Translations under genes and position numbers: made by a program
In this document: piece by piece, positions 27,125-40,828 of the stretch
Numbering within the stretch: the first letter of the stretch is position 1
Layout of the letters: each line of letters begins with the position of its first letter
From: Chondrocystis sp. NIES-4102
GTDB lineage: Bacteria; Cyanobacteriota; Cyanobacteriia; Cyanobacteriales; Xenococcaceae
Length of the DNA: 64,000 nucleotides
Assembly (NCBI GenBank): GCA_002368355.1
Contig: AP018281.1
Coordinates: 3,534,001 to 3,598,000, forward strand
Direction: 5' to 3'
The notes under the pieces: model-generated
The model's database searches: none
What the model saw: only the letters and a program-made list of their open reading frames with translations
Told to the model about the DNA's origin: nothing

Positions 27125-27415
27125 ATGTATTTATCAACCCGTGGCGCGAGCGTAAGAAACTTAGCAACTGCTATTATAAATGGTGCGATCACTTTAATTT
27201 TATTATTAATTGCCCCTTTAGGACTGGCAACTGTAATTAGTAATACCTTCTTAGTAACTGTCGCTAGCTTTTTTGTTGGCACATTTGCCGATATGATTGT
27301 TAATTGGTTAACTTTTGCTGACGCTAGAAAAAATAAATTTACTCCCTTTCAAAGCACAAGAGAATTAAAACTGCAAAAGCCAAAATTATCCGCTATAGAG
27401 AGACATAAATCATGA
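27125..27415 (+). CDS. csx18: Small membrane protein next to cas1, probably Csx18
   Basis: 96 residues: YLSTRGASVRNLATAIINGAI start, two hydrophobic helices (about 12-36 and 40-62), then a basic cytoplasmic tail DARKNKFTPFQST. It overlaps cas1 by four bases (ATGA), so they are translationally coupled. It resembles the small membrane protein annotated as Csx18 beside type III-B and related cyanobacterial CRISPR loci; the name is from memory. Its function is unknown, but fixed linkage to cas1 suggests a role in adaptation or in anchoring the system to membranes. Confidence 0.65.
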   Translation: MYLSTRGASVRNLATAIINGAITLILLLIAPLGLATVISNTFLVTVASFFVGTFADMIVNWLTFADARKNKFTPFQSTRELKLQKPKLSAIERHKS

Positions 27416-28401
27416 AAAGTCTCTATGTATCTCAACAAGGTTGCCATATATCCTTAGATAAGGAAACTCTTATTGTTCGTTATCGCCAAGACATTGTAAA
27501 TAGTATCAAGATCCCATTACTTGAACAAATTTTAATTTTTGGTAAGTCTCAAATTACTACTCAGGCAATTAGAGCTTGTATTTGGCAAAATATCCCCATT
27601 GTCTATCTTTCACGCATGGGTTACTGTTACGGTCGAGTTTTACCCCTAGAAAGAGGATACCGTCAACTTTCGCGCTATCAACAGCAATTAGCTCATGGAG
27701 AAAAATTAACCGTAGCTAGAGAAATTATTCTAGCAAAACTAAAAAACAGTCGCGTTTTATTACAAAGACAACAACGCAAACAACAAACACCAGTATTATC
27801 TCAAAGCTTGCTGGATTTAAATCATTTGATTACTAAAATTAAACAGGTTAAAGATATAGATCAATTAATGGGTTTAGAGGGTGCAGGTGCAGCTTGTTAT
27901 TTTTCTGCCTATGGGGAAACTATTACAAATTCAGATTTTATCTTTATTGGTCGTAGCCGTCGTCCTCCAGCAAACCCTGTCAATGCCATGTTAAGCTTCG
28001 GATATCAGATATTATGGAATCATCTTTTAGCTTTGATTGAAGTGCAGCAACTAGATCCCTATCAAGCTTGTTTGCATCAAGGTAATTATCGTCATGCAGC
28101 CTTGGCTTCTGATTTAATTGAAGAATTTCGCGCCCCTATAGTTGATTCTCTAGTTTTATATCTAATTAATCGACGGATAATTAACTCCGTAAACGATTTT
28201 ATTTATCATAATGGCGGTTGCTATCTCAATGACTTGGGAAGAAGGAAATACCTACAAGCATTTATACAACGCATGGAAACAGAAATTAAAACCGATGGAG
28301 GAAATCAACCACGATGGGATTTATTGACACAGCAAGTCAAATTATTTAAACAGTTTGTTTATCAACCCTGCCAACTATACCAACCTTATCTAATTCGATA
28401 A
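27412..28401 (+). CDS. cas1: CRISPR-associated endonuclease Cas1
   Basis: 329 residues, usual length. The N-terminal beta domain carries KSLYVSQQGCHISLDKETLIVRY, the C-terminal helical domain has LMGLEGAGAACYF with the metal ligand Glu156, HQGNYRHAALASDLIEEFRAPIVDS with His228, and Glu237/Glu238. All three integrase ligands are present, so it should work with Cas2 to insert spacers. The gene is upstream of the array on the plus strand, opposite to the inferred array transcription. A terminator follows. No cas4 or reverse transcriptase fusion is seen. Confidence 0.97.
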   Translation: MKSLYVSQQGCHISLDKETLIVRYRQDIVNSIKIPLLEQILIFGKSQITTQAIRACIWQNIPIVYLSRMGYCYGRVLPLERGYRQLSRYQQQLAHGEKLTVAREIILAKLKNSRVLLQRQQRKQQTPVLSQSLLDLNHLITKIKQVKDIDQLMGLEGAGAACYFSAYGETITNSDFIFIGRSRRPPANPVNAMLSFGYQILWNHLLALIEVQQLDPYQACLHQGNYRHAALASDLIEEFRAPIVDSLVLYLINRRIINSVNDFIYHNGGCYLNDLGRRKYLQAFIQRMETEIKTDGGNQPRWDLLTQQVKLFKQFVYQPCQLYQPYLIR

Positions 28402-28462
28402 TCATCTAATCATCTCGATAGCGGGCATGGTTTTGCCATTTTAATTATTATAACACAATTAG

Positions 28463-28507
28463 GCGATCGCTCTTGAAAATAATTTAGCGATCGCTTTTCT
28501 TTTTTTT
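28463..28507 (+). terminator. HIP1-containing intrinsic terminator after cas1
   Basis: GCGATCGCT (28463-28471) pairs with AGCGATCGC (28486-28494) around a 14-nt loop, followed by TTTTCTTTTTTTT. Both arms hold HIP1, so the site is also a HIP1 duplication. It separates cas1 from the convergent end of the array. Confidence 0.8.
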
Positions 28508-28619
28508 AATTAGTTTTTCGCTTAAATTAAACAGAATTATCTGCCGAACACATAGTTTAATTTTCATTCTGTTACTTTCTTTAGAAATTAAATAGTTGTT
28601 AATTATTAATTAAAGTTCC

Positions 28620-31215
28620 ATTGCCATTCAATTAGTTTCTCTAAAAAATATAGACCCTTACATGAAATATCTGGATTTCATCTTTTTTCAGAAGTTTCCA
28701 TTCAATTAGTTTCTCTAAAAAATATAGAGTGTAAACCCTTTGTGATTCATCATATCTAGCCATTGTTGTTTCCATTCAATTAGTTTCTCTAAAGAATATA
28801 GAGTTAGACAAATGCTAAAAAACGGTATTCCAGAAACAGAAGCCTGTTTCCATTCAATTAGTTTCTCTAAAGAATATAGAGTCAATTAAATCCAATGCTC
28901 TTCGCGCCGAAAGAAAGAATAATGCGTTTCCATTCAATTAGTTTCTCTAAAGAATATAGAGTGGAATGATGCTATTGCGCTTTATATAAGTATTCTCGAT
29001 GTTTCCATTCAATTAGTTTCTATAAAGAATATAGAGTACACTAGTATGTTTGGTGATACTCGCCATCGTTTTAGTTTCCATTCAATTAGTTTCTATAAAG
29101 AATATAGAGATCAAAAGATGGTGCAGATAAAATATTTTCTTTCCAAGTTTCCATTCAATTAGTTTCTATAAAGAATATAGAGACAAATTTACGTCCGAAA
29201 GCAATACCATCTTTGATAAGTTTCCATTCAATTAGTTTCTATAAAGAATATAGAGTTTATGCCTTTACCAAAATCTGGAGGAGTGAAATTGATCAAACAG
29301 TTTCCATTCAATTAGTTTCTATAAAGAATATAGAGATAAAATCAGCAGAGAGAAAAAAAATGACTAAAGTAAAGTTTCCATTCAATTAGTTTCTATAAAG
29401 AATATAGAGACAAGAATTTTTCCATATGGATTGACTGGCACAACGGGAAGTTTCCATTCAATTAGTTTCTATAAAGAATATAGAGTTGAGAAGATGGAAG
29501 GGTTAATCAATCATGTTAAAGAGTTTCCATTCAATTAGTTTCTATAAAGAATATAGAGAACAACTTCATTGTCGATCAACAAGCTCATTTAGATAATTTG
29601 TTTCCATTCAATTAGTTTCTATAAAGAATATAGAGTTTATACTACAAAATTTGGAGCTACTTACCTATACGTTTCCATTCAATTAGTTTCTATAAAGAAT
29701 ATAGAGTTGATATTTTTGTAGTTCCTGTATCTACACTGGAAGTGTTTCCATTCAATTAGTTTCTCTAAAGAATATAGAGAATATTTTTACTTTGAAGAAA
29801 AACCTTCGCTAATTTTAAGTTTCCATTCAATTAGTTTCTCTAAAGAATATAGAGAGAGAATTGTGAATTTACCAATTAATAAATTAATGTTTCCATTCAA
29901 TTAGTTTCTATAAAGAATATAGAGTGCCCTGAGTAAAGCTTGGAAGATACTAAGTATCCCCCAGGTTTCCATTCAATTAGTTTCTATAAAGAATATAGAG
30001 TAATTAAGATGCTAGTAGTATACCCATCAAATGATGATCAAGTTTCCATTCAATTAGTTTCTATAAAGAATATAGAGTTGCAATAATACTACGCAAGTGG
30101 AAATTGACAACGCTTCTTTGTTGTTTCCATTCAATTAGTTTCTATAAAGAATATAGAGTTGTTGTGCGGAATCAATAGATTTTTTATTCAACTCGTTTTG
30201 TTTCCATTCAATTAGTTTCTATAAAGAATATAGAGGCTGATTCGAGGAATAGGGTATTAAGATCTGGGTTAAAGTTTCCATTCAATTAGTTTCTATAAAG
30301 AATATAGAGTTAACAAAAAGCTTTGCCCAAGCCCGTCAACAATTCCACCAAGTTTCCATTCAATTAGTTTCTATAAAGAATATAGAGAGAATCCATTCGT
30401 TTTTAAATCCAACACGGCGATTAGTTTCCATTCAATTAGTTTCTATAAAGAATATAGAGTTAGTTCTGACAAAGAACCAACGCTATTATATTACAATGTT
30501 TCCATTCAATTAGTTTCTATAAAGAATATAGAGTCGTAATTAGATTCTACTTCCATTAAAATTTCTTTTAAAGAGTTTCCATTCAATTAGTTTCTATAAA
30601 GAATATAGAGTTTAGTACCTTTATTGACCTTTGCTTTAGGATTATATTTGTTTCCATTCAATTAGTTTCTATAAAGAATATAGAGTTTAACTCGTCAAGA
30701 AATACAAAACAGCTATATAAAGTTTCCATTCAATTAGTTTCTATAAAGAATATAGAGAAATCTATACTTTTAACCTAGTAAAACCAGGAAGTACTTGTTT
30801 CCATTCAATTAGTTTCTATAAAGAATATAGAGGTAAAACAAATTAAAATTAATAGCTATAATACATTTGTGTTTGCATTCAATTAGTTTCTATAAAGAAT
30901 ATAGAGTTTTTGTTATAGCTTTTGCAGTGTCGAACATATTTCCATCAGGTTTCCATTCAATTAGTTTCTATAAAGAATATAGAGAGTAGCTATTATAGCC
31001 CAGTTACCCTCTGAACTTTTGCAAAGTTTCCATTCAATTAGTTTCTATAAAGAATATAGAGTCTATTCCCTGAATAGGCTTGACATCGTATAAATAATGT
31101 CTGGTTTCCATTCAATTAGTTTCTATAAAGAATATAGAGTTGAAGGAATGAATGATGACCAATTCCGCTATTGGTCGATGTTTCCATTCAATTAGTTTCT
31201 ATAAAGAATATAGAG
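28620..31215 (-). CRISPR. CRISPR array, 35 repeats of 36 bp and 34 spacers of 34-45 bp
   Basis: On the plus strand the repeat starts GTTTCCATTCAATTAG, continues TTTCTATAAAGAATATAGAG, and occurs 35 times at 72-81 bp spacing. The first copy (28620-28655) is degenerate in its first bases and ends TAGAC; repeat 31 starts GTTTGC. Five copies read CTCTAAAG (repeats 3-5, 16, 17) and two read CTCTAAAAAA (1, 2) where the rest read CTATAAAG. The minus strand is called the crRNA sense because the repeat then ends ATGGAAAC, like the GAAAC-type 5' handle of type III crRNAs, and the worn repeat lies at the far end. I saw no duplicate spacers. Confidence 0.98.
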
Positions 31216-31441
31216 ATTCTCCATTAAAACCCAGATATAGTGCAATGTCTAGCAAGGGTTTGCGAGGCTGAGAAAAGATAGAGTAGGATAGGCGGTTAAA
31301 AATAAAATAAAAATGACACAAAGCCATATTTGGCAAAGAATCGAGGCTGATAATGAGACAATAATAGTTATAGGGATTTTAGTTAAGCGTCGGCAAAAAT
31401 ATCAACTAATAAAAATAAATTACTCAAAAATACGATCGCCC
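31216..31441 (-). promoter_or_regulatory. Probable CRISPR leader
   Basis: A 226-bp AT-rich region between the well-conserved end of the array and cas2. It contains AAACCC (31227-31232) and GGGTTT (31256-31261) as an inverted repeat close to the first repeat, plus a GCGAGGCTGAG stretch. On the minus strand a possible promoter is TTGCCG with TATAAC 18 bp downstream, far from the array; this is weak. Position next to the least degenerate repeats supports leader function. Confidence 0.65.
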
Positions 31442-31720
31442 TTAGATAATTATTGAACCAGGTGATTTAGTAAGTTCTTTTCCTACACCCCAAGTTTTGA
31501 CTTGCTGCAATGTGTGACGACTTATTGTATAAATTCTAATGTTATCCTCATCTAAATTAATTCTTTTTTTTAAGCGATCGCTAAGTTGTTGATATTGTTG
31601 TGTATTTAAGACACATTCAAACACACTATACTGAACTCTCTCTCCATAACCTAATAACAAGTCGGCAATTTTTTTGCGCCGTTTATCGCAAGGGATATCG
31701 TAGACAATTAGATAAAACAA
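31442..31720 (-). CDS. cas2: CRISPR-associated protein Cas2
   Basis: 92 residues, a ferredoxin-fold homodimer that bridges two Cas1 dimers. MFYLIVYDIPCDKRRKKIADLL with the conserved Asp8, then GYGERVQYSVFEC and a closing IYTISRHTL...GVGKEL segment, all typical. Unlike most systems it is split from cas1 by the entire array and lies on the opposite strand to cas1, reading toward the leader. Its stop lies at the leader edge. Expression must be separate from cas1. Confidence 0.96.
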   Translation of the reverse strand: MFYLIVYDIPCDKRRKKIADLLLGYGERVQYSVFECVLNTQQYQQLSDRLKKRINLDEDNIRIYTISRHTLQQVKTWGVGKELTKSPGSIII

Positions 31721-31950: not shown

Positions 31951-34900
31951 ATGACAAGACTTTATTGGCAGGCGAAAAGCTGGGGCTTGCTGCATGATCC
32001 TGGTTATAAAGGTTTATCACACTCACAAGATTTCGGTAGAGAAGGGCAATGGCACATTCTAAAATCTATGAGTGGCTGGAAATCTCCCAAGGAGAAATGT
32101 AAGTATGAATCCTTAGATGCGATCGCAAGTGAATCTCTTAATGGTACTTGGTTAAAACATATTGGGTTATCGGATTTAATTGCTTCTGCTAGTGACAGGA
32201 GTACAATAGGTAGACTAGATCCCACCTACAGTGCCATCAGTTATCGTGATCATGGGTTGCAAATTCACCATTTATTATCAGGTAAAGCTCAATCTATAAA
32301 AATATCTCAGTGGCATGAGAGGTTGCAACAACCCAAACGTAAAGACTTTTTAGAAGCACAGGAATTAGCAGTATTAAACCTAATTAAAGAAGAAGAAGAT
32401 CCACGTTTAGTACATTGGTGGTTATGGCGTTGCTATCCCGATATATTAGCCAAAGATATGTCAGAAATATATCTGCTACCTGCTGAAACCCGTTTTCCCG
32501 ATGCTTCCTTATGGAGTCATACTAGTATTACCTCAGCCTTAGCTGGCGGTTTGGCAGGATATTATCAGCAAAGAGAAGATTATCCCAGTAAAAATCAAAG
32601 TTTCACCCGTTCTCGTCCCCATTTAGTAATATTTACCTTCTCTCCCGTACAAGAATTAGTTAAATCTAGTCGCAAGATGCGTGACTTTTGGGCTGGTTCT
32701 TTTTTACTACATTATCTATCCGCCAAAATTTGTTATAAATTAGCCCATAGATACGGTGCAGACATCTTTTTATATCCTTGTTTATATCAACAGCCTTTAA
32801 TCGATCACTGGTTGTTAGATGATTATCCCCAGTTTAGTCAATGGATCGAAAAGCCAACCCCACAGCAATTACTCACGGCGGGTTTCCCTAATAATATTGT
32901 GATGATTCTTCCAGATAATGGCAAACAGGGAGAAGAAATAAAAGATAATCCTATATATGCAGCAACTCAATATGCCAAACAGATTTTAAAACAAGAGTGG
33001 GAAAAATTAGGCAATAAATCCTTAGAAAATCTCATAAAAATAAATCCAGCTTGGGAGAATATCAACCCCCACACTTGGGATGGATGGTTAAATGCACAAT
33101 GGCAAACATATTGGACAGCTTTACCTATAGGTAACATAGAAACAGATTTACATCATTCCTATGGCAAAAGCAAAGATAAAACCAAAGAAAGAGAAAATCA
33201 GCAGAAATATCAAGCTTGGTGTCGCCAACAAAACGATTTTACTGGTTTAGAAGAAGATCCCGAAAATCCTGAAAAATCACCTACCCTGTTTCATCAACAC
33301 GAAGCGGAGTTTCTCAAAGCAATTTTTGGGATTGCAGACATGGAGACGGAAATAGGATCAAATTCTCAAAGCTATTCCAAACAACCCAATCTTAATGTTG
33401 GTTCTTGGTGGGGTAATATATTTGATCGCCTGCGGAATAATCTCAGGGCAGTTAAAAACGCCCGTAACTGGAAAATACCCACCGCTTTTACAACTCGTTC
33501 CACTATTTCTGGTATTGGGGCGGTAGTGCATAACTATAATTTAGACTGGGTAAAAGAAGGAGAAACCAAACAGTTTTGGCAAAATAAGCGTCATATTGGT
33601 TTATTTGATGGTGTTGAACAATTAAACGCCACCGAAGTAGTTAAAAGAGTTTTACACAGAATATTGCCAGAGATTCTAGCAGGAAATAATAACCAGATTA
33701 AAGATTTTTCCCTAACTTATCCCGATCTTAGTTCGGGGGTTGCAGGTTGGTTAAAACAAGCCCAAAGCCAGGGAGATAAACAAGCCATTGAACTTTACCA
33801 AAGAAGTTGCGCCGAAATTACTCAACAGTATAATTGGACAGAAGCAGTAGCCCGAACTGCTTGGGGTATTCCTTGGATTAATTATAATTATCCACAATTA
33901 CCCAATCCTCGACTATTAAATTATGGTTGGTTAATCGAAGATGCAGGTATTGATCAAACTGTCGCAGCCAAGCAAAAACAACTAGAAGAACTTAAAAATA
34001 CTATAACTAAATATTTCCCTGCTGGTCGAAATCCTACCGACTGGTATGTCATTGCTGCTGGTGATGGGGATGATATGGGTAAATGGTTGAAGGGAAGTAA
34101 ATTAAAATCCTATCAAAACTATATACCCCAGGAATTAATTAATAAAATAAATAACTCTCCCGACACAATTAAAACACCAGTCACCCAATTTCTTCAGGTA
34201 AACAAAAGAATGGGCCCTGCTACCCATAGTGCTTTGAGTCGTTCCCTACTAGATTTTGCCAATCAATTAGTACCCTATTTAACAGAATCTCGCTACGCAG
34301 GGAGATTAATTTATTGCGGTGGTGACGATATTTTAGCCTACAGTAATCTTTGGGAATGGGATCAATGGTTGTGGGATATTCGCCAGTGTTTTAGGGGACA
34401 AGATGATCCAAAACAGGAGTTTATTAGTCAGGGAGATTATTGGCGACTGGGAGACAAACATTTAAATAAAAATTCTGCCACAGATGGTTTATGCTTACCA
34501 GATCGTCCTTTATTTACCTTGGGATCTTCGGCAACTATTAGTTTTGGTGTCGTTATTGCCCATCATTCCGTCCCGCTAGCGATCGCTTTAGAAAATCTTT
34601 GGCAGGCAGAGGCAGAAGCTAAGGAACATTATTATCTTGATGATATAGGAATTATTTATAAAGATGCAGTTCAAGTTCGGGCCGTTTATGGTAACGGTAA
34701 CATTTTACAAGCCACGGCTAAATTCAATGTCTTCGATGCTTGGCGAGAGTTGGTAGAATTTGCACAACAACATGATCAATTAGATAGCGCAATTTTTGAA
34801 CAAGCTGTTGAAATTTGGTTACAACATCCTGCACCACCAACAGCAATTGAACAATGGACAAAAGGATTTTGCGAGCGAAGAAATGTTTTTAGTAATAATA

Positions 34901-35073
34901 TAGAAGACCGTGAAATCTTTGCTTTCAAACTTAGTAAATTAATCAAGGATTTAATTAAACATAATTATAACCATCAAAAGAGTGATGAGGAAATAAGAAA
35001 CTGGTTAAAACTCGCAGCATTTACCATTAGAAATAGAGCAATTTCTGTGAGTAATTTAGTAACGCAACATTAG
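31951..35073 (+). CDS. cmr2: Type III-B Cas10/Cmr2, large subunit with GGDD palm
   Basis: 1040 residues, the signalling subunit of the Cmr complex. N-terminal LLHDP (His15, Asp16) is the HD-type motif of Cmr2. The block LPAETRFPDASLWSHTSIT is characteristic of Cmr2. The palm domains show GDGDDMGKWL (about 699-708) and CGGDDILAYS with Gly790-Gly791-Asp792-Asp793, so cyclic oligoadenylate synthesis on target RNA binding is expected. First gene of the plus-strand effector operon. About 230 bp separate it from cas2, which reads away on the other strand, so promoters for both lie there. No clear Shine-Dalgarno before ATG 31951. Confidence 0.95.
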   Translation: MTRLYWQAKSWGLLHDPGYKGLSHSQDFGREGQWHILKSMSGWKSPKEKCKYESLDAIASESLNGTWLKHIGLSDLIASASDRSTIGRLDPTYSAISYRDHGLQIHHLLSGKAQSIKISQWHERLQQPKRKDFLEAQELAVLNLIKEEEDPRLVHWWLWRCYPDILAKDMSEIYLLPAETRFPDASLWSHTSITSALAGGLAGYYQQREDYPSKNQSFTRSRPHLVIFTFSPVQELVKSSRKMRDFWAGSFLLHYLSAKICYKLAHRYGADIFLYPCLYQQPLIDHWLLDDYPQFSQWIEKPTPQQLLTAGFPNNIVMILPDNGKQGEEIKDNPIYAATQYAKQILKQEWEKLGNKSLENLIKINPAWENINPHTWDGWLNAQWQTYWTALPIGNIETDLHHSYGKSKDKTKERENQQKYQAWCRQQNDFTGLEEDPENPEKSPTLFHQHEAEFLKAIFGIADMETEIGSNSQSYSKQPNLNVGSWWGNIFDRLRNNLRAVKNARNWKIPTAFTTRSTISGIGAVVHNYNLDWVKEGETKQFWQNKRHIGLFDGVEQLNATEVVKRVLHRILPEILAGNNNQIKDFSLTYPDLSSGVAGWLKQAQSQGDKQAIELYQRSCAEITQQYNWTEAVARTAWGIPWINYNYPQLPNPRLLNYGWLIEDAGIDQTVAAKQKQLEELKNTITKYFPAGRNPTDWYVIAAGDGDDMGKWLKGSKLKSYQNYIPQELINKINNSPDTIKTPVTQFLQVNKRMGPATHSALSRSLLDFANQLVPYLTESRYAGRLIYCGGDDILAYSNLWEWDQWLWDIRQCFRGQDDPKQEFISQGDYWRLGDKHLNKNSATDGLCLPDRPLFTLGSSATISFGVVIAHHSVPLAIALENLWQAEAEAKEHYYLDDIGIIYKDAVQVRAVYGNGNILQATAKFNVFDAWRELVEFAQQHDQLDSAIFEQAVEIWLQHPAPPTAIEQWTKGFCERRNVFSNNIEDREIFAFKLSKLIKDLIKHNYNHQKSDEEIRNWLKLAAFTIRNRAISVSNLVTQH

Positions 35074-35099
35074 TTATGTATCTTCATTGCATATATTAA

Positions 35100-36272
<1,173 letters not shown>

Positions 36273-36290
36273 ATAAATAGAAAAATCGTT

Positions 36291-37076
36291 ATGCTTATTA
36301 ATTACAGCTATCTTTATTTACTTTCTCCTTTACATACAGGGGGGACTACCCAAGAAGGTAATTTAGTCGGAATTGCCCGTGAATCTCATACTAATTTTCC
36401 TTATATTCCTTCTAGTAGTATTCGTGGCAGACTTAGGGCGAATGTAGAAGATCAACAGCAAAAATATAAACTATTTGGTACAGAATTAGAAAATACTAGC
36501 CAGTTAGAACAGGGTAATATTTGGATTGGGGATGGTGCATTATTATGGCTGCCCGTACCTTCCTTAAGTCATGGAGTAGTTTGGGTAAGCTGTCCGATGC
36601 TATTGAGACGCTGGGGGAGATATACGGGTAAATTAGCCCAAATTCCCGTAGAATATAGCTGTAATTGTCTAAATGGTAATTCGGGTGTTTATCTTAAAGA
36701 TGCCATTCTCAAAAAAGAAGAATTAAAACAATGGCACAATTGGCAAGAATTCATCCCTCAAACACCCCAAACTCAAACAATAGAAAGAGCGATCGTACTT
36801 CCCGATAAACATTGCGCTACCTTAATACAAATGAGTTTATGGCGACAGGTAAAAATTAAACTCGACGAAAAGAAAAGTGTTGATGGTGGTTTGCGTTATG
36901 AAGAAGCTATTCCCCCCGACACTCTAATGTATTTCACTTGGGGAATTACCTCGGCTGCCAATGCTAGGGCATCTGAAATGGATCAAGAATTTACTGAATT
37001 ACTAAATAAACAAAAAATCTTGCAAATTGGCGGACAAGAAAGCCTAGGCAGAGGTTTTGTACAGCAATGGGTATAA
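36291..37076 (+). CDS. cmr4: Type III-B backbone subunit Cmr4, catalytic Asp apparently absent
   Basis: 261 residues, the repeated filament subunit that slices target RNA every 6 nt in canonical III-B. SPLHTGGTTQEG and HTNFPYIPSSSIRGRLR are clear Cmr4 marks. In canonical Cmr4 an Asp (Asp26 of P. furiosus) stands between G and the P-I-Q-R-E run; here residues 23-31 read GNLVGIARE with no acidic residue in that place. So the family is clear while slicing activity looks lost. The rest, including IGGQESLGRGFVQQW, is normal. Confidence 0.92.
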   Translation: MLINYSYLYLLSPLHTGGTTQEGNLVGIARESHTNFPYIPSSSIRGRLRANVEDQQQKYKLFGTELENTSQLEQGNIWIGDGALLWLPVPSLSHGVVWVSCPMLLRRWGRYTGKLAQIPVEYSCNCLNGNSGVYLKDAILKKEELKQWHNWQEFIPQTPQTQTIERAIVLPDKHCATLIQMSLWRQVKIKLDEKKSVDGGLRYEEAIPPDTLMYFTWGITSAANARASEMDQEFTELLNKQKILQIGGQESLGRGFVQQWV

Positions 37077-37116
37077 AAACGCTCACACATAGCAATTATT
37101 ATTATATTTAAGATAT

Positions 37117-37503
37117 ATGCAAACCTTCGACCCCCGCACCCTCTCTACTCCTGTATACGAAGCCTTACAAGAGTTACGCACGCGACATAGCAATAATAAT
37201 TCTCGTTTAAAAGAACAAAAAAGCCAAGCAGTAGAATTATATACTTACCTCGCCACTTGGGGCATGATGCGCTTAAAAGCAGAAGAACAAGCATTAAGCC
37301 AAGATGGGAAAAAAGATGTGGTTAAGAAATATTTTGAATGTCTGCAAATTCTCTATCAGGATAAAAGTTTTAGCAACAATTTAGATTCCCTCAAAGATAT
37401 GAAAGCGGATGACTACCTGGGTTTAACTGGTTTGGGCGTAAGCTTGGCACAAGAATTTAGTTTCTGGGCAAATGCTATTTACAGTGATATTAAAGGCGAA
37501 TAA
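37117..37503 (+). CDS. cmr5: Type III-B small subunit Cmr5
   Basis: 128 residues, all helical; binds the target RNA side of the filament next to Cmr4. AVELYTYLATWGMMRLKAEE and TGLGVSLAQEFSFWANAIYSD match the small-subunit pattern. It lies 40 bp after cmr4 and 96 bp before the fused RAMP gene. An alternative small function such as Cas6 was considered and rejected: there is no ferredoxin fold signature or glycine-rich loop. Confidence 0.88.
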   Translation: MQTFDPRTLSTPVYEALQELRTRHSNNNSRLKEQKSQAVELYTYLATWGMMRLKAEEQALSQDGKKDVVKKYFECLQILYQDKSFSNNLDSLKDMKADDYLGLTGLGVSLAQEFSFWANAIYSDIKGE

Positions 37504-37599
37504 GAATTTAACGCCTCAGCAGATTACTTTTAAGTTTCACAGTTTAAATCAGCAACACTGAATTTATCCTTACTTATTAATTTATAGTTTTTTTTACTA

Positions 37600-39486
37600 A
37601 TGTCATATAGATCTAATCAACCCAGGGGAAATAATAATAATAGTAATAACAATAACGGCAGAAACATTACTCCTCCTTCACCTTGGTTAAAAGGCGATAA
37701 GGAACTTAAACCAAGTAATGCAGCTAGTTTTATTGAATACTTGCGTCATCTGCGCGAACCTGAAAAAGAATATAAAGACGTAACCAAGATACAGATATTA
37801 CAAATAGCACAGGAGAATGCCAAATATAGCGATCGCCTTAAGCAATTAAATCAACGTACTAAATTGATTGCAGGGGAGGATAATAGTTTTAAAGTTAAAT
37901 GTCCTTGGCGTATTCGTGTTGGTGGACATCGTGGGCCCGAAAATATATTATTACCTGCTTTTGATGCTTTGGGAATGCCCTATATTCCTTCTAGTACCCT
38001 TCGCGGTGTGGCAAGAAGTCAAGCTATTAGAGAAATAGTTGCTAGCAAAAACGTTAAATGGCAAGAGGCAGAAAAGCAAGTAGCCCCTTATTTTGGTTCA
38101 ATTGATATCAAGAATGGGGAAGATTGCGCTGGGAAGGTGGTTTTTCTAGATGCTTATCCTTTACCTTCTGATTCTGGTGGGTTGAGTATGGATATGGCAA
38201 ATAATATATGGAAATGGGAAGGTTCGCAACTTCAATATCAATCTAACCCTAATGTTTTTCTGTCTTTATATAATTCTGAATTTTTGGTTGGTTTACGTTT
38301 AGTTAGTAATTGTCAGGATCAAGAGGTTTTAGATAAGGTCAAGCAATGGTTGATTTTAGGTTTAGAAGCTGGTATTGGTTCTCAAATTAATAGTGGTTAT
38401 GGAAGAATTATTACACCAGATAAAAGTAAATCTAGTGATATATTTTTCAAAGTTAAATTTGCTTTAGAAGGACAGTTAATTCATGGACATCAAAAACTTA
38501 TAAATCCTCAACAACCCTTTAAAAAAAATTCAGATGGTAGTTTCAAATTAAATAGAAATGGAGAGTTACAAGCTAATACTTCTAGCGTCCCCGAAGTGCG
38601 GGCGATCGCTTTTAAATCTATGTTGCGTTATTGGTTTCGGGCTTTTGCTTTTGGGGTTTTACCAGCAGCAGAAGTAATTAATTGGGAAAGTCTAATTTTT
38701 GGTGGCATTAATCCCCAGAAATGCGGTTGGATTAAAGTAAATATTATTAACGGCAAAGTAATTCGAGAAGAAGCAAAAAAAAAGCAGCATAAATGCGGTG
38801 AACAGAAAGGTATTTTAACCCTATCTTATGGTGTTGTTTCCCCTGAAGATGAAGAGAAACGCCTAACAATTGCAGCATTATTGAAAAATTTAACTTGGAT
38901 GATGTTTAATCTTGGTGGTGTTGGACAAGGTGCAAGAAGACCCTGTTATAGTCGTCAAAATAGAGAGTTTGCTCCCTGGTTTCGTGGTTCTAGTATGTTT
39001 ATTGATGCTGACTTAGATAATCCTAAATCTTTATGGTATCTACCAGAATCTGCTAAGGATTTTCAAGGGTTATTTAGCAAGAGACTTAAAGCTTTTTATA
39101 CTGCTTTAGACAAGTTAATTCCTAATAGTAATATCGAACAAAAAATTAAAACTCCTCTAGCTTTTAAACAGCCAAGTACTGATAGTTGGTTTGATGCTGT
39201 AGATAAACATTGCAAGATTATAGTTTGTTCGGGGAAAGAACAATATGATAAATCCCATGCTTTAGCTGTTTTACATAGCGACGACTTAAAAATAGGTGGA
39301 AATTATGACGGAAATCTATGTGGACAAACTAATAAAACCGTTAAACCTTCCCCTGTTTGGATAGCTGATTTAGATGATTATCAAGTAGTTACTATATTTG
39401 GAGCGACAGTTGCACCGCGATCGCAGTATTTGGAAAAATTAAAACAGAAATCTGAGCAATATTATCAAATATTTCCTTTCAATTAA
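37600..39486 (+). CDS. cmr6-cmr1: Fused Cmr6-Cmr1 RAMP protein
   Basis: 628 residues. The N-terminus has an Asn-rich stretch (about 10-21), then a Cmr6-like RAMP (about 95-275): WRIRVGGHRGPENILLPAFD, PYIPSSTLRGVARSQAIRE, VVFLDAYP and GLEAGIGSQINSGYGRI. The C-terminal half (about 280-628) is Cmr1-like, with VRAIAFKSMLRYWFRAFAF (about 333-351), the LIFGG and GVGQGARRP loops. Both normally are separate subunits at the end of the Cmr filament. It lies seven bases before the CARF-HEPN gene. Confidence 0.85.
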   Translation: MSYRSNQPRGNNNNSNNNNGRNITPPSPWLKGDKELKPSNAASFIEYLRHLREPEKEYKDVTKIQILQIAQENAKYSDRLKQLNQRTKLIAGEDNSFKVKCPWRIRVGGHRGPENILLPAFDALGMPYIPSSTLRGVARSQAIREIVASKNVKWQEAEKQVAPYFGSIDIKNGEDCAGKVVFLDAYPLPSDSGGLSMDMANNIWKWEGSQLQYQSNPNVFLSLYNSEFLVGLRLVSNCQDQEVLDKVKQWLILGLEAGIGSQINSGYGRIITPDKSKSSDIFFKVKFALEGQLIHGHQKLINPQQPFKKNSDGSFKLNRNGELQANTSSVPEVRAIAFKSMLRYWFRAFAFGVLPAAEVINWESLIFGGINPQKCGWIKVNIINGKVIREEAKKKQHKCGEQKGILTLSYGVVSPEDEEKRLTIAALLKNLTWMMFNLGGVGQGARRPCYSRQNREFAPWFRGSSMFIDADLDNPKSLWYLPESAKDFQGLFSKRLKAFYTALDKLIPNSNIEQKIKTPLAFKQPSTDSWFDAVDKHCKIIVCSGKEQYDKSHALAVLHSDDLKIGGNYDGNLCGQTNKTVKPSPVWIADLDDYQVVTIFGATVAPRSQYLEKLKQKSEQYYQIFPFN

Positions 39487-39493
39487 ATTATCT

Positions 39494-40828
39494 ATGTCCA
39501 GCATTTTTTTATCTTTTGTTGGTAATCAAGATCCAGGTTCAGATAGAAATGGTCAAGAAGGGTCAATTGTAACTTTAATCCGTCATTTATTAGAGCAAAA
39601 GCATGACATAAAAAAGATCTTTCTTCTATATACTTTTGGAACAAAAGAAGCTGCTAAATTAACTAAAGAATGGTTGTTATTATTATTAACTATCCCTCCA
39701 GAAAAGATAGAAATAATTGCAGTAGATGAGCAACTATCCCAAGATCCCATCAATTTATTATTAGCAGTCCAAGAAGCCAGAAAAGCGATCGCACGCGCCC
39801 AAGAGGAATTATTACCAGGCGATCGTTTGGAATTTAATTCTTCTTCAGGTACTCCTGCAATGAAAAGTTCCTGGAGTATTATTCAAGCATCGGGATTAGC
39901 TTTTAATACCCATCTTTGGCAGGTTAGAGATCCTGAGAGAAAATTAGATCATCAACAACAAGTATTTGAATCGGATATTAGTGTTTTAAAGAAAACTATT
40001 GATCTTCAAACTATCAAAAAACAATTAGCTGTTTATAATTATAATGGTGCGTTAACTACTCTTAACGCTAGCAATTTAATAGATAATTCCGATAGTAATG
40101 ATAATCTGATCATTGATTTATTAAAATCTGCTTCCCTACGTTTAAATTCTGCTTTTGAATCTAGTTTTAATATAATCAAAAAACATGAGCATTTACTAGA
40201 CGAATATTTTTGGCAACAAAGTAAAAATCTAAGGGATAGACAACACGGAGAAATTCTTAAAGAAATTTACTTTCAAGCAGAAATTAAAGCTAAAAATGAG
40301 GATTATTCAGAATTACTAGTAAAAATATTTGTTTTTCAAGAAAGTGTTTTATTCTATCTACTAAAGCAACATTTATTACCCAGGCAAGATATTAATTTAG
40401 CAATGAATGACAACTTGAAGAATAAATTAACTGCTGCCATTCAAAGCTACGCTCAAGGTGATTTACAAAAATATCTCAATAACTACAGATTAGCTAACGG
40501 TCAAAAGCTGCTGATCAATAATAATTATAATCGTACAGTAATGACAGTTATTATTCAATACTGCTGCAAAAATAATAGCAAAATAATTAATTTACTCAAT
40601 AAATTTGAGCGCTATTGTCAACAAAGAAACGAATACATTCATCAACTAAAAGGCATAGATAAACTGGAAGCAGAAACAATCTTAAAAGATCTGAATGAAA
40701 TCCTAAAATTCTTAACAATTGAAACAAAAAATAAACCTTTCGAGTTGATCAATCAAACAATAGAGCAATTACTAGAAAAAAACCAAGAAATATCTAATAA
40801 TAATCACCAACTAGAAAACAAAAAATAG
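39494..40828 (+). CDS. CARF-HEPN ribonuclease, Csm6/Csx1-like
   Basis: 444 residues. The N-terminal part (1-170) is a CARF-type domain: SSIFLSFVGNQDPGS, and the ligand loop SSSGTPAM (116-123) as in Csm6/Csx1. After a helical linker the C-terminal HEPN domain ends with RNEYIH, an R-x4-H motif (Arg378, His383). Known proteins of this kind bind cyclic oligoadenylate made by Cas10 and then degrade RNA nonspecifically, causing dormancy or death. It starts seven bases after the fused RAMP gene, so it is in the same operon. Which ring size activates it cannot be told. Confidence 0.88.
   Translation: MSSIFLSFVGNQDPGSDRNGQEGSIVTLIRHLLEQKHDIKKIFLLYTFGTKEAAKLTKEWLLLLLTIPPEKIEIIAVDEQLSQDPINLLLAVQEARKAIARAQEELLPGDRLEFNSSSGTPAMKSSWSIIQASGLAFNTHLWQVRDPERKLDHQQQVFESDISVLKKTIDLQTIKKQLAVYNYNGALTTLNASNLIDNSDSNDNLIIDLLKSASLRLNSAFESSFNIIKKHEHLLDEYFWQQSKNLRDRQHGEILKEIYFQAEIKAKNEDYSELLVKIFVFQESVLFYLLKQHLLPRQDINLAMNDNLKNKLTAAIQSYAQGDLQKYLNNYRLANGQKLLINNNYNRTVMTVIIQYCCKNNSKIINLLNKFERYCQQRNEYIHQLKGIDKLEAETILKDLNEILKFLTIETKNKPFELINQTIEQLLEKNQEISNNNHQLENKK

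What the first reader, a model, noticed from the sequence alone, without database searches (positions are those of the whole stretch)
36291..37076. Cmr4 lacks the slicing aspartate while Cas10 GGDD and the CARF nuclease are intact
By motif alignment, the canonical Cmr4 catalytic Asp falls in residues 24-28, which read NLVGI with no acidic residue. Together with intact GGDD (790-793) and R-x4-H in the HEPN protein this predicts a complex that senses RNA and signals through cyclic oligoadenylate without cutting the target. Without slicing, the signal may stay on for longer.
Basis: partly seen in the sequence, partly recalled or inferred. Interest (0 to 1): 0.85.

Follow-up and report, generated by a model that had tools for sequence, protein, structure and literature searches.

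The report
Cyanobacterial CRISPR complex without its slicer
This cyanobacterial type III CRISPR complex has lost, by a one-residue deletion, the amino acid that normally cuts the bound target RNA while keeping the enzyme motif that sends the alarm signal, and most related complexes found in cyanobacteria share the change, so it looks like a lineage-wide redesign and not a local defect.

Summary
The window holds a complete type III-B locus whose Cmr4 (36291-37076) has no acidic residue where P. furiosus Cmr4 has slicing Asp26. The residue is deleted, not substituted: the loop has 7 residues in 80 of 80 D-less cyanobacterial Cmr4s and 8 in 93 of 93 Asp-bearing ones.

It is not peculiar to this genome. 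Of the 83 best Cmr4 matches in 386 genomes of the phylum, 76 (37 genera) share the D-less loop, 3 others lack Asp and 4 keep it. Synechocystis 6803 Cmr4 is D-less too. In 80 loci from a wider scan, 81 of 81 Cmr4 ORFs have Asp, though the ranking favoured Thermus-like sequences. Cas10 keeps GGDD in 77 of 77 D-less loci where it was found, the HD motif in 37.

Most likely this is a functional non-slicing complex whose constant output is cyclic oligoadenylate. A Microcystis system sharing its repeat with D-less loci protects E. coli from T4, more with Csx1. No cleavage assay was available; a rebuilt active site is not excluded.

The parts
27412..28401 (+). Cas1
   Evidence: PF01867 299.8 bits
28694..31215 (+). 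CRISPR array, 34 repeats of 36 nt (GTTTCCATTCAATTAGTTTCTATAAAGAATATAGAG, up to 3 mismatches)
   Evidence: one search found no copy elsewhere in the genome at up to 3 mismatches
31442..31720 (-). Cas2
   Evidence: PF09827 87.8 bits
31951..35073 (+). Cas10/Cmr2, 1040 aa, HD motif at residues 15-16, GGDD at 790-793
   Evidence: TIGR02577 157.6 bits, cut-off 79.4; motifs
35154..36272 (+). Cmr3
   Evidence: PF09700 222.8 bits; TIGR01888 42.8 bits, below its cut-off 100.4
36291..37076 (+). Cmr4 backbone subunit without the slicing Asp
   Evidence: TIGR02580 137.1 bits; AlphaFold2 model pLDDT 87.2, Foldseek TM (query length) 0.81-0.83 to Cmr4 chains of target-analog-bound complexes 9x25 and 3x1l
36357..36383 (+). 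Loop G23-N-L-V-G-I-A-R-E31, one residue shorter than in Asp-bearing Cmr4
37117..37503 (+). Cmr5
   Evidence: PADLOC Cmr5 213.6 bits; no Pfam or NCBIfam match
37600..39486 (+). Cmr6-Cmr1 fusion
   Evidence: two RAMPs stretches; Cmr6 matches in the N part and weak Cmr1 matches from residue 324 on
39494..40828 (+). CARF-HEPN ribonuclease (Csx1/Csm6 type), R-x4-H at residues 378-383
   Evidence: PADLOC CARF1-CARF_HEPN 548 bits; TIGR02672 88.9 bits, below its cut-off 150; motif

Best explanation
The locus encodes a working type III-B (III-Bv-like) Cmr complex whose Cmr4 backbone binds crRNA and target RNA but no longer cuts the target. Target binding switches on Cas10: the Palm cyclase makes cyclic oligoadenylate, which activates the adjacent CARF-HEPN ribonuclease, and in this genome the HD domain may also cut DNA. 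Shown here: the catalytic Asp is deleted; the deletion is fixed in a large cyanobacterial lineage, under purifying selection, with the cyclase motif kept in every D-less locus where a Cas10 was found. Inferred: absence of slicing, cOA production, prolonged activation. Shut-off would then come from target dissociation or decay, or from cOA breakdown (possibly by the CARF protein itself), not from cutting.
For: Asp26 column: gap in the window and in all 80 cyanobacterial group A/B/C Cmr4s; loop 7 residues there against 8 in 93 of 93 Asp-bearing Cmr4s. The 76 D-less loci of the phylum scan span 37 genera and 21 families. Tree built without the loop columns: A+B+C against Asp-bearing rows needs 1 change. 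Sites kept in 80 of 80: His15, Arg30, Arg45, Gly46, Arg49, Gly247, Gly248. Purifying selection in group A: median omega 0.23 over 42 pairs; Gly23, Asn24 and Gly27 invariant in 46 of 46 with 2-4 synonymous codons each. GGDD in 77 of 77 D-less loci with a Cas10; HD motif in 37 of 77. Function: the Microcystis FACHB-524 Cluster 4 complex gave about 10-fold T4 resistance and about 10-fold more with Csx1; its repeat occurs exactly in 4 of 291 genomes (1-2 mismatches in 3 more), and in the five of these seven whose Cmr4 I had, listed repeat copies lie 5.0-8.2 kb from a D-less group A Cmr4. Synechocystis D-less Cmr4 (Sll7087) is listed as a candidate RNA-interacting protein in an RNase gradient study (passages).
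Against: I found no cleavage or cOA assay of any D-less Cmr4. Cmr4-alpha D27A was lethal through autoimmunity in S. islandicus, which would call for another brake in natural slicer-less systems; none was identified here (no Csx3 above cut-off, no Cas_APE2256 match). The same paper says that the Cmr4-beta D31A mutant was readily made and that several bacterial Csm3-dead strains are viable, so a special brake may not be needed. Acids remain near the site in most D-less proteins (Glu22 in 44 of 46 group A; Glu/Asp27 in 10 of 10 group B) and Asn24 is invariant, so a rebuilt site is possible. The Microcystis strain's own Cmr4 was not read; the link is through its repeat. The Asp-bearing control set favours Thermus-like proteins.
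Confidence: 0.74

Rival explanations
1. The active site was rebuilt: the shortened loop with invariant Gly-Asn, helped by His15 and Glu22 (group A), Glu/Asp27 (group B) or upstream acids (group C), still cuts target RNA, perhaps slowly.
For: Asn24 and His15 are kept in 80 of 80 D-less Cmr4s and Glu22 in 44 of 46 group A proteins; strict conservation of the loop suggests a function.
Against: No acidic position is common to groups A, B and C; L007 and L033 have no acid at all between His15 and Arg30. D26A (V. metoecus) and D27A (S. islandicus) abolish slicing in the papers read in passages. In PDB 9arw Cmr4 the same Asn coexists with the Asp (GNVD), so Asn is not simply its substitute. The column of P. 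furiosus Glu227 is Asp in group B and Thr/Val in group C.
Confidence: 0.15
2. Target RNA is cut by another part of the system (Cmr6-Cmr1 fusion, HEPN effector, or a host RNase), so the complex is reset as usual.
For: The fusion has two RAMP stretches; the HEPN ribonuclease is next door.
Against: None of these is known to cut within the guide-target duplex (recalled). Not tested here.
Confidence: 0.06
3. The locus is decaying and Cmr4 is a broken relic.
For: Loss of a catalytic residue can mark decay.
Against: The Cas genes are open; array of 34 repeats; loop conserved across 37 genera; omega about 0.23 in group A; cyclase motif kept in 77 of 77.
Confidence: 0.03
4. Alignment artefact: the Asp is present but misaligned.
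For: The loop is short and the alignment there has a gap.
Against: Flanking motifs (LSPLHTGG and IARESHTNFPYIPSS) fix the loop on both sides; between His15 and Arg30 the window has one acid only, Glu22; pairwise, profile and multiple alignments agree.
Confidence: 0.02

Closest known systems
Subtype III-Bv of Synechocystis sp. PCC 6803 (pSYSA)
   Same: Same gene order Cas10-Cmr3-Cmr4-Cmr5-RAMP fusion; Cmr4 about 64% identical and also D-less.
   Different: Window has a CARF-HEPN gene directly behind the fusion and cas1/cas2 on either side of the array; Synechocystis has cas2, cas1 and csx18 together. Its crRNA maturation by RNase E (title of Behler 2018 seen in a reference list; paper not read) was not tested here.
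Microcystis aeruginosa FACHB-524 III-B Cluster 4 (PMC11855584)
   Same: Cmr1-6 fusion; Csx1-type effector; repeat 30 of 36 identical to the window's.
   Different: The authors suppose Asp-based slicing by Cmr4; Cmr4s near that repeat in five other genomes are D-less.
Slicing type III-B Cmr (P. furiosus, T. thermophilus HB8, A. fulgidus)
   Same: Subunits and Cmr4 fold (TM 0.81-0.83 to target-analog-bound 9x25 and 3x1l chains).
   Different: They have Asp in an 8-residue loop (P. furiosus and T. thermophilus; 9x25).
Vibrio metoecus Cmr (PMC8682760, passages)
   Same: Prolonged activation is proposed there because slicing is very slow.
   Different: It has the Asp and cuts slowly; its Cas10 lacks HD.
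[quoted passage not shown]
   Same: Cas7 catalytic aspartates not conserved.

Membership tests
Type III-B CRISPR (Cmr) | Cas10/Cmr2, Cmr3, Cmr4, Cmr5, Cmr6 (and Cmr1) in one locus | tested here: met
   Cmr1 only weakly, fused behind Cmr6; Cmr3 and Cmr6 below NCBIfam cut-offs, Cmr4 and Cas10 above; Cmr5 by PADLOC only
Type III-B CRISPR (Cmr) | Cas10 with GGDD cyclase motif | tested here: met
   Residues 790-793
Slicing Cmr4 (Cas7) | Catalytic Asp in the loop after the first strand (P. furiosus Asp26) | tested here: not met
Slicing Cmr4 (Cas7) | Target RNA cut at 6-nt spacing | not testable with these tools
   Needs an assay
Subtype III-Bv (Synechocystis 6803) | Gene order with Cmr6/Cmr1-type fusion and group A Cmr4 | tested here: met
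Subtype III-Bv (Synechocystis 6803) | crRNA maturation by RNase E without Cas6 | tested here: inconclusive
   No cas6 among the eight locus proteins scanned; one Cas6 match elsewhere in the genome, about 1.4 Mb away; processing not tested
cOA signalling system | CARF effector with active-site motif | tested here: met
   CARF-HEPN 548 bits, R-x4-H; activity not tested
Subtypes III-G / III-H | Cas10 cyclase motif replaced | tested here: not met
   GGDD intact

The most novel reading that the evidence does not exclude
A whole cyanobacterial lineage of type III-B has shed its slicer and, in about half of its loci, its DNase too, leaving an RNA-triggered second-messenger synthase with no built-in timer. 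In 40 of 77 D-less loci with a Cas10 neither the Asp nor the HD motif was found, and GGDD is the only one of the three catalytic motifs left. The conserved Gly-Asn loop would then be a new holding element for target RNA, and signal shut-off would lie wholly outside the complex.
Probability: 0.45. Interest if true: 0.78.

Novelty: new variant of a known kind. Interest (0 to 1): 0.66.

Why it matters
In the current model, Cmr4/Csm3 slicing is the off-switch that stops Cas10; removing it was lethal for the S. islandicus Cmr-alpha system, although Cmr-beta and several bacterial Csm3-dead mutants are viable (passages of PMC9368842). If 37 cyanobacterial genera carry slicer-less complexes with an intact cyclase motif, cutting the trigger RNA is not a general requirement, and these systems let one ask directly how type III immunity is stopped without it. 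It also means that cyanobacterial III-B complexes should not be assumed to degrade target RNA, and may be ready-made long-signal RNA sensors.

Tried and rejected
Glu22 as a stand-in catalytic acid: not an acid in groups B and C and Ala in 2 of 46 group A proteins; kept only as a rival. Locus decay: rejected. A window-specific mutation: rejected by the survey. Relation to III-G/III-H: rejected because GGDD is intact. Atomic placement of the loop from the AlphaFold2 model: not possible, no coordinates were found in the box. A ring nuclease in the genome: Csx3 gave one match below cut-off, Cas_APE2256 none; other ring nuclease families were not searched. Prior report of the D-less state: ten paper searches gave listings, and the passages or parts I read did not state it; Behler 2018 was not looked up, one Cas10 survey is not held, and most subscription papers are not in the library, so an earlier report is possible. 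The first tree had 4 Asp-bearing rows mislabelled by a pattern of mine; they were relabelled by the aligned column, which is the one used. The first HD count used a loose pattern; one search supersedes it. The tree used 80 of 176 rows: eight long-branched loci were left out and groups A, C and D were thinned.

Full report
What is there. The window carries a full type III-B locus: Cas1 (27412-28401 +), an array of 34 repeats (28694-31215), Cas2 (31442-31720 -), then Cas10, Cmr3, Cmr4, Cmr5, a Cmr6-Cmr1 fusion and a CARF-HEPN protein on the + strand from 31951 to 40828. Cas10 has an HD motif at residues 15-16 and GGDD at 790-793; the CARF-HEPN protein has R-x4-H at 378-383.

The missing Asp. Against P. 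furiosus Cmr4 the loop GVVDQPIQRE pairs with GNLVGIARE, one residue shorter; Asp26 has no acidic counterpart. That this Asp is the slicing residue is recalled for P. furiosus and read in passages for S. islandicus D27 and V. metoecus D26. In a 13-sequence alignment all 8 non-cyanobacterial plasmid Cmr4s read (I/V)DLP and all 5 cyanobacterial ones read GNL with a gap.

How widespread. TIGR02580 matched 98 of 386 genomes of the phylum. I took the 83 best-scoring matches (74.7 bits or more); the lower ones, many of them partial, were not examined. Of the 83, 42 have group A loops (GN-x-x-GIARE, the window's kind), 10 group B (GN-x-L-E/D-I-x-RE), 24 group C (GNLNLIFRD), 3 another loop without Asp (Q), and 4 have Asp. 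The 76 A/B/C loci span 37 genera and 21 families. Four more group A proteins come from named plasmids: Synechocystis 6803, Picosynechococcus 7002, Anabaena 7122 and Nostoc 7524, making 80. A fifth named case, Microcystis aeruginosa NIES-2481, reads EGNLMGIARE; it was read and is not among the 80. Other cyanobacterial plasmid matches were not read.

Controls. A scan of contigs of 84,980 species with a mixed profile whose first sequence is T. thermophilus Cmr4 kept the best 80 of 214 relatives. All 81 Cmr4 ORFs in these 80 loci, two of them cyanobacterial, have Asp. The ranking favours Thermus-like proteins, so D-less Cmr4s outside cyanobacteria are not ruled out. Loop length is 7 in 80 of 80 A/B/C rows and 8 in 93 of 93 Asp-bearing rows (81 + 8 plasmid + 4 from the phylum scan; PCC 7702 appears twice); Asn24 is present in 80 of 80 against 0 of 93. 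One solved Asp-bearing Cmr4, 9arw, does have the Asn (GNVD), so Asn is not exclusive to the D-less kind.

Evolution. A careful tree of 80 of 176 rows, with the loop columns removed, needs 1 change between Asp-bearing and A+B+C rows; the three Q rows nest among Asp-bearing rows and count as a second change. The tree is unrooted, long branches meet, and group A is not recovered as one clade in the best tree; that the change was a loss is inferred from Asp being the state of the other systems read. Group A Cmr4 is under purifying selection: median omega 0.23 over 42 non-independent pairs, and Gly23, Asn24 and Gly27 are invariant in 46 of 46 while their synonymous codons vary.

Which enzymes were kept. 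Cas10 was found in 77 of 80 D-less loci (L007 and L011 lie on contigs of about 4 kb; L054 has a Cmr3 fragment and no Cas10 found). GGDD is present in 77 of 77. The HD motif was found in 37 of 77; it was not found in 16 Cas10s of 800 aa or more (one of them, L035, is N-terminally short) nor in 24 short Cas10s of group C. Among Asp-bearing loci with a Cas10, GGDD was found in 78 of 85 (some are draft contigs), so cyclase retention in the D-less lineage is at least as strict. This is what one expects if signalling is the constant job.

Does a D-less complex work? PMC11855584 (abstract, passages and part 2 of 6 of the text read) expressed M. aeruginosa FACHB-524 Cluster 4 in E. coli: complex plus crRNA gave about 10-fold T4 resistance and Csx1 about 10-fold more; a second CARF protein added nothing significant. 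The authors suppose Asp-based slicing and call for study of Cmr4. The Cluster 4 repeat occurs in 7 of 291 genomes searched: exactly in four, all of genus g21, and with 1-2 mismatches in three, two of g21 and one of another genus. In the five of these seven whose Cmr4 I had, listed repeat copies lie 5.0-8.2 kb from a D-less group A Cmr4. I did not read the Cmr4 of FACHB-524 itself, so this is an inference. In Synechocystis, Sll7087 (D-less) is listed among candidate RNA-interacting proteins (PMC12475003, passages).

Mechanism. Shown: Asp deleted, loop conserved, cyclase and HEPN motifs intact. Inferred: guide-bound target is not cut, Cas10 stays active until target leaves or decays, cOA drives the CARF-HEPN RNase. 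In S. islandicus, Cmr4-alpha D27A was lethal by autoimmunity through either Cas10 activity, yet the Cmr4-beta D31A mutant was readily made and Csm3-dead bacteria are viable; whether natural slicer-less systems need another brake is therefore open. I found none: Csx3 only below cut-off, Cas_APE2256 none. In V. metoecus, very slow slicing is proposed to give prolonged activation, a partial precedent.

Verdict. I rate it a new variant of type III-B.

Noticed in passing
L108:8674-13095, L076:8340-12919, L093:1-3396: Orphan Cmr4-Cmr5-Cmr6/Cmr1 operons with a D-less Cmr4. L108 and L076 sit at the same chromosomal place (ETF genes, MgsA-type AAA ATPase, S-adenosylmethionine synthetase upstream). No Cas10 (TIGR02577) and no Cmr3 (PF09700) match in 3 of 3 of these draft genomes (83-95% complete), and no CRISPR-like repeat array in the stretches: possibly a domesticated Cmr backbone.
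   Followed up: partly
window 27412-31720: cas1 and cas2 lie on opposite sides of the CRISPR array and on opposite strands.
   Followed up: no
L056 Cas10 N-terminus: Cas10 of a group A locus reads LLQAP where relatives such as L053 have LLHDP, an apparent recent loss of the HD motif in an otherwise similar system.
   Followed up: no
L054:9134-9964: A group A Cmr4 locus without a detectable Cas10 and with only a Cmr3 fragment: a possible broken locus.
   Followed up: no
L073, L157, L160: A few cyanobacterial loci (for example cyanobacterium PCC 7702) keep an Asp-bearing Cmr4, so both kinds exist in the phylum.
   Followed up: no
L108:10141-10536: Tandem repeats of 18-nt period, mostly inside the Cmr5-like gene of the orphan operon.
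   Followed up: no
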